From contig JAUJOT010000008.1 in assembly GCA_030447505.1 (NCBI GenBank), forward strand, positions 182,772 through 214,999: DNA of 32,228 nucleotides, in the 5' to 3' direction. Of this stretch, positions 21,709-31,024 are shown in pieces; position 1 is the stretch's first letter; each line of letters begins with the position of its first letter. The position numbers were made by a program, and so were the translations under genes. This stretch comes from Solirubrobacteraceae bacterium. Its GTDB lineage: Bacteria; Actinomycetota; Thermoleophilia; Solirubrobacterales; Solirubrobacteraceae. The notes beneath the pieces are model-generated. The model ran no database searches. It was given only the letters and a program-made list of their open reading frames with translations, and had not been told where the DNA came from.

Positions 21709-22331
21709 TCGAGCAGCTGGTGCCCGCGACCGTCGCGGCGGTCGCGACGCGCGCCGACCTCAGCAGCGAGCTGTTCGCGCAGGAGGCGCGCTCGCTGGGC
21801 TCGGCGGTGGACACGCGACGCCGTGAGTTCACGACCGGCCGCGCCTGTGCGCGGCACGCCCTCGCGCGCCTCGGGCTGCCGGCTGTCGCGGTCGGCAGCG
21901 GCCTGCACGGCGAGCCGCTGTGGCCGGCGGGCGTCGTCGGCAGCATCACGCATTGCGCGCGCTACCGCGCCTGCGCGGTCGCGCGCGCGCAGGACGTGCG
22001 GGCGATCGGGATCGACGCCGAGGTCGACGCGCCGCTGCCCGCGGGAGTCCTGGCGACCGTCGCGAGCTTCGACGAGCGGCGGGCGCTGGCGCAGCACGGC
22101 GCCGGCGCGTGCTGGGACCGCGTGCTCTTCAGCGCCAAGGAGGCCGTCTACAAGGCGTGGTTCGCGCTGACCGCGCGCGGCCTCGAGTTCGAGGACGTCG
22201 ACGTGCGGATCGATCCGGCCGGCGGGACGTTCGCGGCGCGGCTGCATGTCGACGGCCCTGTGCGCGCGCTGGACGGTCGCTGGGCCGTCTGTGACGGGAT
22301 CGTCGCGACGAGCGTCGTGGTGGGGCGATGA
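21705..22331 (+). CDS. 4'-phosphopantetheinyl transferase (EntD/Sfp type)
   Basis: A 208-aa enzyme that moves the phosphopantetheine arm of CoA onto a carrier-protein Ser. Signatures are RRREFTTGRACARHAL (CoA binding), PLWPAGVVGSITHC (~70-84), IGIDAEVD (Mg2+-binding Asp and Glu, ~103-110) and FSAKEAVYKAWF (~140-151). The length and the WPxGxxGSxTHC form fit the EntD-like subgroup. The GTG start is the only suitable one in frame. Its stop overlaps the PKS start (ATGA), so it almost surely activates the two ACPs of that PKS. Confidence 0.93.
   Translation: MIEQLVPATVAAVATRADLSSELFAQEARSLGSAVDTRRREFTTGRACARHALARLGLPAVAVGSGLHGEPLWPAGVVGSITHCARYRACAVARAQDVRAIGIDAEVDAPLPAGVLATVASFDERRALAQHGAGACWDRVLFSAKEAVYKAWFALTARGLEFEDVDVRIDPAGGTFAARLHVDGPVRALDGRWAVCDGIVATSVVVGR

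Positions 22332-31024: not shown

What the first reader, a model, noticed from the sequence alone, without database searches (positions are those of the whole stretch)
22328..31024. Polyketide synthase whose reading frame ends in a hexapeptide-repeat acyltransferase instead of a thioesterase
The frame runs without a stop from AT-ACP-KS-AT-DH-ER-KR-ACP into a complete left-handed beta-helix transferase with an intact DHxH-type catalytic loop. Usual PKS release domains are thioesterases, reductases, condensation-like or PapA-type proteins. A trimeric LpxA/WbbJ-like fold at this place would allow direct transfer of the acyl chain from ACP2 to a sugar hydroxyl or amine, and it would impose trimeric symmetry on a normally dimeric PKS. 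I know of no described PKS with this terminus, though I cannot search.
Basis: partly seen in the sequence, partly recalled or inferred. Interest (0 to 1): 0.82.

Follow-up and report, generated by a model that had tools for sequence, protein, structure and literature searches.

The report
Polyketide synthase ending in sugar acyltransferase
A soil bacterium and two close relatives carry an assembly-line enzyme for fatty or polyketide chains whose usual chain-cutting domain has been replaced by a domain of the kind that attaches acyl groups to sugars, which suggests the enzyme hands its product straight to a sugar instead of releasing it as a free acid or ring.

Summary
The 2,898-codon frame at 22328-31024 encodes AT-ACP-KS-AT-DH-ER-KR-ACP, a Pro/Ala/Gly-rich linker, and a complete left-handed beta-helix (LbH, hexapeptide) acyltransferase. 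It is neither a sequencing error nor chance: the same ACP-linker-LbH end occurs without a stop in two other species of the genus (Solirubrobacteraceae), in separate assemblies, with only in-frame length changes. One of these has a KSQ loading module and no ER, so the LbH end is conserved while the modules in front change. The closest PKSs of other genera end in a PF00975 thioesterase right after the last ACP: LbH sits where TE sits. The LbH comes from a stand-alone family of the same bacterial family. Its model (pLDDT 91) matches polysialate O-acetyltransferases, LpxA/LpxD and AntD; His2817 aligns on LacA's catalytic His115. Best explanation: the ACP2-bound methyl-branched acyl chain is transferred in cis to a carbohydrate hydroxyl or amine (a glycosyltransferase gene is the constant neighbour). 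Acceptor and acyl-ACP use are inferred. One homologue has Arg for the catalytic His, which weakens universality. Nearest precedents: Pls/PosA NRPS-like enzymes (LbH end) and Pks13 (TE transferring to trehalose). New variant of a known kind.

The parts
22328..31024 (+). PKS-LbH fusion gene, 2,898 aa plus stop
22580..23617 (+). Loading acyltransferase AT0 (aa ~85-430), GHSLGE
   Evidence: Pfam PF00698 two stretches; motif
23753..23953 (+). ACP1 (aa 476-542), GMESL
   Evidence: PF00550
24020..25294 (+). Ketosynthase KS (aa 565-989), Cys-His-His present
   Evidence: PF00109/PF02801; motifs
25604..26566 (+). Extender AT1 (aa 1093-1413), GHSQGE and YASH (methylmalonyl-type motif by textbook rule)
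   Evidence: PF00698; motif
26720..27532 (+). Dehydratase DH (aa 1465-1735)
   Evidence: PF21089/PF14765
28136..28954 (+). Enoylreductase ER (aa 1937-2209); absent from homologue G006
   Evidence: PF08240/PF00107/PF13602
28982..29518 (+). Ketoreductase KR (aa 2219-2397)
   Evidence: PF08659
29783..30013 (+). ACP2 (aa ~2486-2562), GFDSL with phosphopantetheine Ser2538
   Evidence: PF00550 second stretch; motif
30014..30262 (+). Pro/Ala/Gly-rich linker between ACP2 and LbH, about 50% identical between species, in-frame indels only
30266..31021 (+). LbH (hexapeptide) acyltransferase domain with N-terminal helix (aa 2647-2898)
30776..30778 (+). Codon of His2817, predicted catalytic base (aligns on LacA His115)
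30281..30283 (+). In-frame GTG at the position where stand-alone homologues start (possible remnant or internal start; no Shine-Dalgarno seen by eye)
21705..22331 (+). 4'-phosphopantetheinyl transferase (PptT-like), overlaps the PKS start by 4 bases; also next to the TE-ended PKSs of G036 and G016
   Evidence: PF17837/PF01648
20331..21608 (+). Secreted DUF459/SGNH-type protein (weakly PatB-like); not linked to the PKS in other species
18292..20334 (+). 680-aa multi-pass membrane protein, probably GT-C-like (inferred from hydrophobicity; no Pfam match)
30930..31994 (-). Family 2 glycosyltransferase, convergent with the PKS; the only neighbour kept next to the PKS in all three species
   Evidence: PF00535
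15511..17640 (-). PMT-like GT-C membrane protein; its homologue lies next to the GT2 in congeners without the PKS

Best explanation
A one-module type I PKS (loading AT-ACP plus KS-AT-DH-ER-KR-ACP) in which the terminal thioesterase of its relatives has been exchanged for an LbH acyltransferase recruited from a stand-alone family of the same bacterial family. The PptT-like enzyme encoded just upstream arms both ACPs. The module condenses a starter with methylmalonyl units (YASH-type AT) and fully reduces the product, giving a short methyl-branched acyl thioester on ACP2 if it runs once, or a longer one if it iterates. The flexible linker lets acyl-ACP2 dock on the LbH, where His2817 deprotonates a hydroxyl or amine of a carbohydrate acceptor (nucleotide sugar, polyprenyl-linked sugar or glycan). 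That group attacks the thioester, so release and acylation are one step. Shown: architecture, conservation, TE-to-LbH position swap, predicted fold, position of the catalytic His. Inferred: use of acyl-ACP2 as donor, sugar acceptor, chain length, oligomeric state.
For: Domain order and intact motifs. The same C-terminus occurs in G003 (AVDCRST_MAG67) and G006 (OFTM160), in frame. LbH dN/dS between the window and G003 is 0.14, lower than for KR or ACP2 (0.28). The nearest PKSs (KS-AT about 58-63% identical) end ACP-PF00975 TE, and the KS tree groups the LbH PKSs inside that family set. G006 differs in loading module (KSQ-AT-ACP) and lacks ER but keeps ACP-LbH. The LbH model (pLDDT 90.6) matches NeuO/OatWY (Z about 20), QdtC, LpxA (Z 19), LpxD including the LpxD-ACP complexes 4ihf-4ihh (Z 18) and AntD (Z 17.6): the top rows are enzymes that acylate sugars, several from acyl-ACP or a non-acetyl acyl-CoA. 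His2817 aligns on LacA His115 and is near-invariant over 36 LbH proteins. The constant neighbour is a GT2, which in PKS-less congeners sits in polysaccharide gene sets with a GT-C, a GT1 and a Wzx-like flippase.
Against: G006 has Arg instead of the catalytic His (CAC to CGC) although its LbH branch is no longer than the others'. The stand-alone relatives are not next to PKSs or ACPs but next to PALP/ThiS or AT3/AprA-like genes, so the family has no known acyl-ACP donor. By sequence the LbH is nearer to WbbJ/WcaF/LacA-type acetyl-CoA enzymes than to LpxA/LpxD. The GT2 link is convergent, not operonic, and could be mere synteny. Only three species from metagenome assemblies carry it, and nothing has been tested at the bench.
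Confidence: 0.62

Rival explanations
1. The LbH is an ordinary acetyl-CoA-dependent sugar O-acetyltransferase physically tethered to the PKS; it acetylates the same final glycolipid or polysaccharide, and the chain on ACP2 is removed by another enzyme in trans (a separate TE, PapA-like or membrane acyltransferase).
For: Closest profiles are WbbJ, WcaF, NeuD and LacA, all acetyl-CoA users; stand-alone relatives have no ACP partner nearby.
Against: It occupies the exact TE position after the terminal ACP, and no separate release gene is kept next to the PKS in the three species.
Confidence: 0.18
2. The mRNA makes two products: the LbH is also or only made as a discrete protein from an internal start near the GTG at 30281, or is cut off at the linker, and works as a free enzyme.
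For: The in-frame GTG at 30281 lies where stand-alone homologues begin, and the linker is poorly conserved.
Against: No stop in the linker of any of three species, indels only in multiples of three, a conserved GYRGAVL motif spanning the would-be start, and no Shine-Dalgarno-like sequence seen by eye before it.
Confidence: 0.09
3. The LbH is a non-catalytic scaffold that oligomerises the PKS or binds a glycan, its catalysis being lost or irrelevant.
For: G006 has Arg in place of the catalytic His; LbH folds are trimerisation modules by general knowledge.
Against: The window and G003 keep the whole catalytic loop under strong purifying selection (dN/dS 0.14), and no other release domain exists on the protein.
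Confidence: 0.08
4. Assembly or sequencing error joining two genes.
For: The window's last ~200 bases are evident low-quality G/C runs at a contig end.
Against: Same junction in two other species' assemblies; coding signal continuous.
Confidence: 0.01

Closest known systems
TE-terminated modular type I PKSs of other Solirubrobacteraceae (G036, G016, G132, G166) and actinobacterial cis-AT PKSs in general
   Same: KS-AT 58-63% identical, same module types, PptT-like gene next to the PKS in G036 and G016
   Different: They end ACP-thioesterase (PF00975); here ACP-LbH
Pls/PosA homopoly-amino-acid synthetases (TIGR02353; e.g. PosA, PMC10522769)
   Same: Assembly-line carrier protein followed by LbH units at the C-terminus that are thought to take the acyl thioester from the carrier
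   Different: NRPS A-T domains; three tandem LbH units with six membrane helices (~730 residues); TIGR02353 scores 16.9 bits against a cut-off of 423 here
Pks13 of mycobacteria
   Same: PKS whose C-terminal domain passes the product onto a sugar (trehalose) (PMC9210659)
   Different: Uses an alpha/beta-hydrolase TE, not an LbH; very long chains loaded by FadD32
LpxA/LpxD acyl-ACP sugar acyltransferases
   Same: LbH fold (Z 18-19); acyl-ACP donor is the proposed chemistry
   Different: Discrete proteins fed by type II ACP; curated LpxA/LpxD models score far below cut-off
NeuO/OatWY, WbbJ, WcaF, LacA hexapeptide O-acetyltransferases; AntD N-acyltransferase
   Same: Closest fold (Z 17-20) and catalytic His position
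   Different: Discrete, CoA donors, not fused to a PKS
LovF/LovD (own knowledge)
   Same: A reducing PKS makes a 2-methylacyl chain that an acyltransferase takes directly from the ACP
   Different: LovD is a discrete beta-lactamase-fold enzyme and the acceptor is a polyketide

Membership tests
Type I (cis-AT) polyketide synthase | KS, AT and ACP on one chain with intact catalytic residues | tested here: met
   NF045894 2314.9 bits against cut-off 1740
Type I PKS with terminal thioesterase | PF00975 TE after the last ACP | tested here: not met
   No PF00975 in P0001; present in nearest relatives
Hexapeptide / LbH acyltransferase superfamily | Left-handed parallel beta-helix fold with hexapeptide repeats | tested here: met
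   PF00132/PF14602 E ~1e-5, just under the gathering cut-off; model pLDDT 90.6 with many LbH PDB matches
Hexapeptide / LbH acyltransferase superfamily | Catalytic His equivalent to LacA His115 | tested here: met
   His2817 aligns on it; G003 also; not met in homologue G006 (Arg)
Hexapeptide / LbH acyltransferase superfamily | Homotrimer with active sites between subunits | not testable with these tools
   No complex prediction available
LpxA/LpxD acyl-ACP transferases | Curated family score above cut-off | tested here: not met
   TIGR01852 18.9 of 231; TIGR01853 31.2 of 242
LpxA/LpxD acyl-ACP transferases | Uses acyl-ACP as donor | not testable with these tools
   Needs biochemistry
Pls/PosA NRPS terminal domain (TIGR02353) | Curated score above cut-off; three LbH units with six TM helices | tested here: not met
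   16.9 of 423 bits; a single LbH unit and no comparable TM-LbH repeat
Pks2/Mas-type iterative mycobacterial PKS | Curated equivalog score (NF041183) | tested here: not met
   1229 of 2400 bits

The most novel reading that the evidence does not exclude
A new class of PKS release domain: a cis-acting left-handed beta-helix acyltransferase that moves the finished chain from the terminal ACP directly to a carbohydrate, with three PKS chains gathered around one LbH trimer.
Probability: 0.35. Interest if true: 0.82.

Novelty: new variant of a known kind. Interest (0 to 1): 0.62.

Why it matters
The known ways a PKS lets go of its product are few, and they set what the product can be. A natural thioesterase-to-LbH swap, with the parent form still present in sister genera, would add a release chemistry that decorates sugars directly. 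It would provide a ready-made part for making acylated glycans, and it makes testable how a trimeric transferase works with a PKS that is usually dimeric or monomeric.

Tried and rejected
(1) Sequencing or frame error: rejected by two homologous fusions. (2) The stand-alone LbH family being ACP-linked: the ~90-aa gene before it looked like an ACP by size but is ThiS/MoaD (PF02597), the ~410-aa gene is a PALP enzyme and the ~800-aa gene is LigD. (3) DUF459 as functional partner: its homologues are widespread and unlinked to the PKS. (4) The first LbH structure model, from 12 sequences (pLDDT 74), gave no significant Foldseek matches, with Z 12-15 at 12 A rmsd to LbH enzymes; I read this as a wrong-handed helix. 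Repeating with 36 sequences solved it. (5) Search for further PKS-LbH fusions: none among 396 Actinomycetota and 399 Thermoleophilia genomes sampled beyond the three; only the top four candidates per genome were scored, so distant fusions could be missed. One genome-contig scan found only the same two and stand-alone relatives. Plasmid records: none. (6) Literature: no paper on a PKS with a hexapeptide/LbH terminus in the open-access library; subscription papers are not held.

Full report
CHECK OF THE OBSERVATION. The frame 22328-31024 (+) is open for 2,898 codons, with GC at codon positions 0.80/0.54/0.96, the pattern of a real high-GC gene. Pfam finds AT, ACP, KS, AT, DH, ER, KR, ACP and hexapeptide repeats in that order. 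Every catalytic motif looked for is there. The last 252 residues form a complete left-handed beta-helix preceded by a 30-residue helix: the model from 36 aligned sequences has mean pLDDT 90.6 and pTM 0.88. An earlier 12-sequence model was poor and, from 12 A rmsd at high Z, appears wrong-handed.

WHERE IT IS. Two relatives found in named genomes are Solirubrobacteraceae metagenome assemblies: AVDCRST_MAG67 for G003 and OFTM160 for G006. G003 and G006 are congeners of the window's genome, so the window belongs to the same family of Thermoleophilia, Actinomycetota. The window's + end is the end of its contig, and its last ~200 bases are G/C runs that look like bad sequence; they lie beyond the gene.

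IS THE FUSION REAL? Of seven genomes held for the genus, three have the PKS, and all three end ACP-linker-LbH without a stop. The linker between ACP2 and LbH is only about 50% identical and varies in length, yet always by whole codons, while the LbH itself is 93% (G003) and about 72% (G006) identical to the window's. Between the window and G003 the LbH has dN/dS 0.14, against 0.28 for KR and ACP2. G003's copy is cut by its contig end before the ER, so its front half was not seen. G006 has a KSQ-AT-ACP loading module (DTGQSSSL) and no ER. The C-terminus is thus conserved while the parts in front differ.

WHAT DID IT REPLACE? The closest PKSs in the order (KS-AT about 58-63% identical) belong mostly to other genera of the family. 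Four whose 3' end could be read (G036, G016, G132, G166) carry a PF00975 thioesterase after the last ACP. In two of those loci (G036, G016), and in a further PKS locus of the same order (G590), a PptT-like gene like the window's 21705-22331 stands next to the PKS. In a KS tree the two LbH-ended PKSs group together (99/98) within the set that holds the TE-ended ones. The LbH domains form one clade (100/100) beside stand-alone LbH proteins of the same family, which are 36-51% identical. Those stand-alone genes lie next to PALP and ThiS genes and LigD, or next to an AT3 acyltransferase and an AprA-like methyltransferase, not next to PKS genes. The simplest history is one event in this genus that put a local LbH gene in the place of a thioesterase; a GTG at 30281, where the stand-alone proteins begin, may be the remnant of its start codon. 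This history is inferred.

WHAT THE LbH IS. Nearest solved folds are polysialate O-acetyltransferases NeuO and OatWY (Z about 20), QdtC, LpxA (Z 19), LpxD, including its complexes with acyl carrier protein (Z 18), and AntD (Z 17.6). By sequence profile it is nearest to WbbJ, WcaF, LacA and similar enzymes, always far under the curated cut-offs. His2817 aligns on LacA His115, the catalytic base (textbook knowledge), and is near-invariant over 36 LbH proteins. The exception is G006, with Arg through one base change. The G006 branch is not unusually long, so general decay is not evident; the finding stays unexplained and is the main reason for caution.

SURROUNDINGS. Upstream on the same strand are a 680-aa membrane protein, a secreted DUF459 protein and the PptT-like transferase, whose gene overlaps the PKS start by four bases. 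The one gene next to the PKS in all three species is a convergent family 2 glycosyltransferase. In two congeners without the PKS the GT2 lies close to the homologue of the window's 15511-17640 GT-C protein, and in one of them (the other not typed) beside a Wzx-like flippase and a GT1, as if the PKS block had been inserted between them in the window or lost in the others. This puts the PKS in a surface-polysaccharide setting. DUF459 homologues are common and unlinked to the PKS.

MECHANISM. Shown by sequence: a fully reducing module with a methylmalonyl-type AT motif (YASH, textbook rule), two ACPs, and an LbH acyltransferase with its catalytic His in the TE's place. Inferred: the chain on ACP2 is the LbH's donor, the acceptor is a carbohydrate hydroxyl or amine, and release and acylation are one reaction. 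If the module works once, the product is a short 2-methyl-branched acyl group; if it iterates, a longer one. I put the ACP-to-carbohydrate transfer at about 0.62. The rivals are a tethered acetyl-CoA enzyme (0.18), a separately made LbH (0.09) and a scaffold (0.08).

COMPARISON. I found no paper on a PKS with this terminus in the open-access library. Two precedents limit the novelty. Pls/PosA synthetases are NRPS-like enzymes whose C-terminus is modelled as three LbH units on membrane helices (PMC10522769); this LbH is not a member (16.9 of 423 bits). Pks13's thioesterase passes its product to polyols, preferably trehalose (PMC9210659). The claim of imposed threefold symmetry could not be tested; Pks13, Mas and PpsA were mainly monomeric in solution, so there may be no conflict.

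VERDICT. A real, conserved, rare domain architecture: a new variant of the type I PKS with an LbH release domain that most likely acylates a sugar. No other example turned up in about 400 sampled genomes each of the class and the phylum, within the limits of that search.

Noticed in passing
window 32030-32228: The contig end is about 96% G+C in long G and C runs, very likely sequencing or assembly noise; no bearing on the PKS frame.
   Followed up: partly
window 1066-1914 (-), with 603-1079 (-) and 1911-2831 (-): MbnB/TglH/ChrH-type (PF05114) RiPP-modifying enzyme with a small unassigned neighbour and a possible membrane protein; no precursor peptide was sought.
   Followed up: no
window 17774-18250 (+): Methyltransferase reading frame that matches only the second half of Methyltransf_11; probably a decayed gene. 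G003 has a fuller 224-aa methyltransferase near its PKS (L026:14400-15074).
   Followed up: partly
L027:478-1230 (G006): The fused LbH of G006 has Arg for the otherwise near-invariant catalytic His (DSDRTH, CAC to CGC).
   Followed up: partly
L029:7990-12674, L031, L033, L030: Recurrent gene order PALP enzyme - ThiS/MoaD carrier - stand-alone LbH acyltransferase - LigD-sized gene in several Solirubrobacteraceae genera (typed by Pfam in L029 only, ThiS also in L031); the role of the LbH beside a sulfur-carrier system is unexplained.
   Followed up: partly
L032:6992-11926, L038: In PKS-less congeners a stand-alone LbH sits beside a ~900-aa protein with AprA-like methyltransferase domains and, in L032, an AT3 acyltransferase.
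   Followed up: no
window 3091-4161, 4158-4859, 7598-8587, 8659-10035, 12608-13750: Several genes with strong coding signal have no significant Pfam match; not studied.
   Followed up: no
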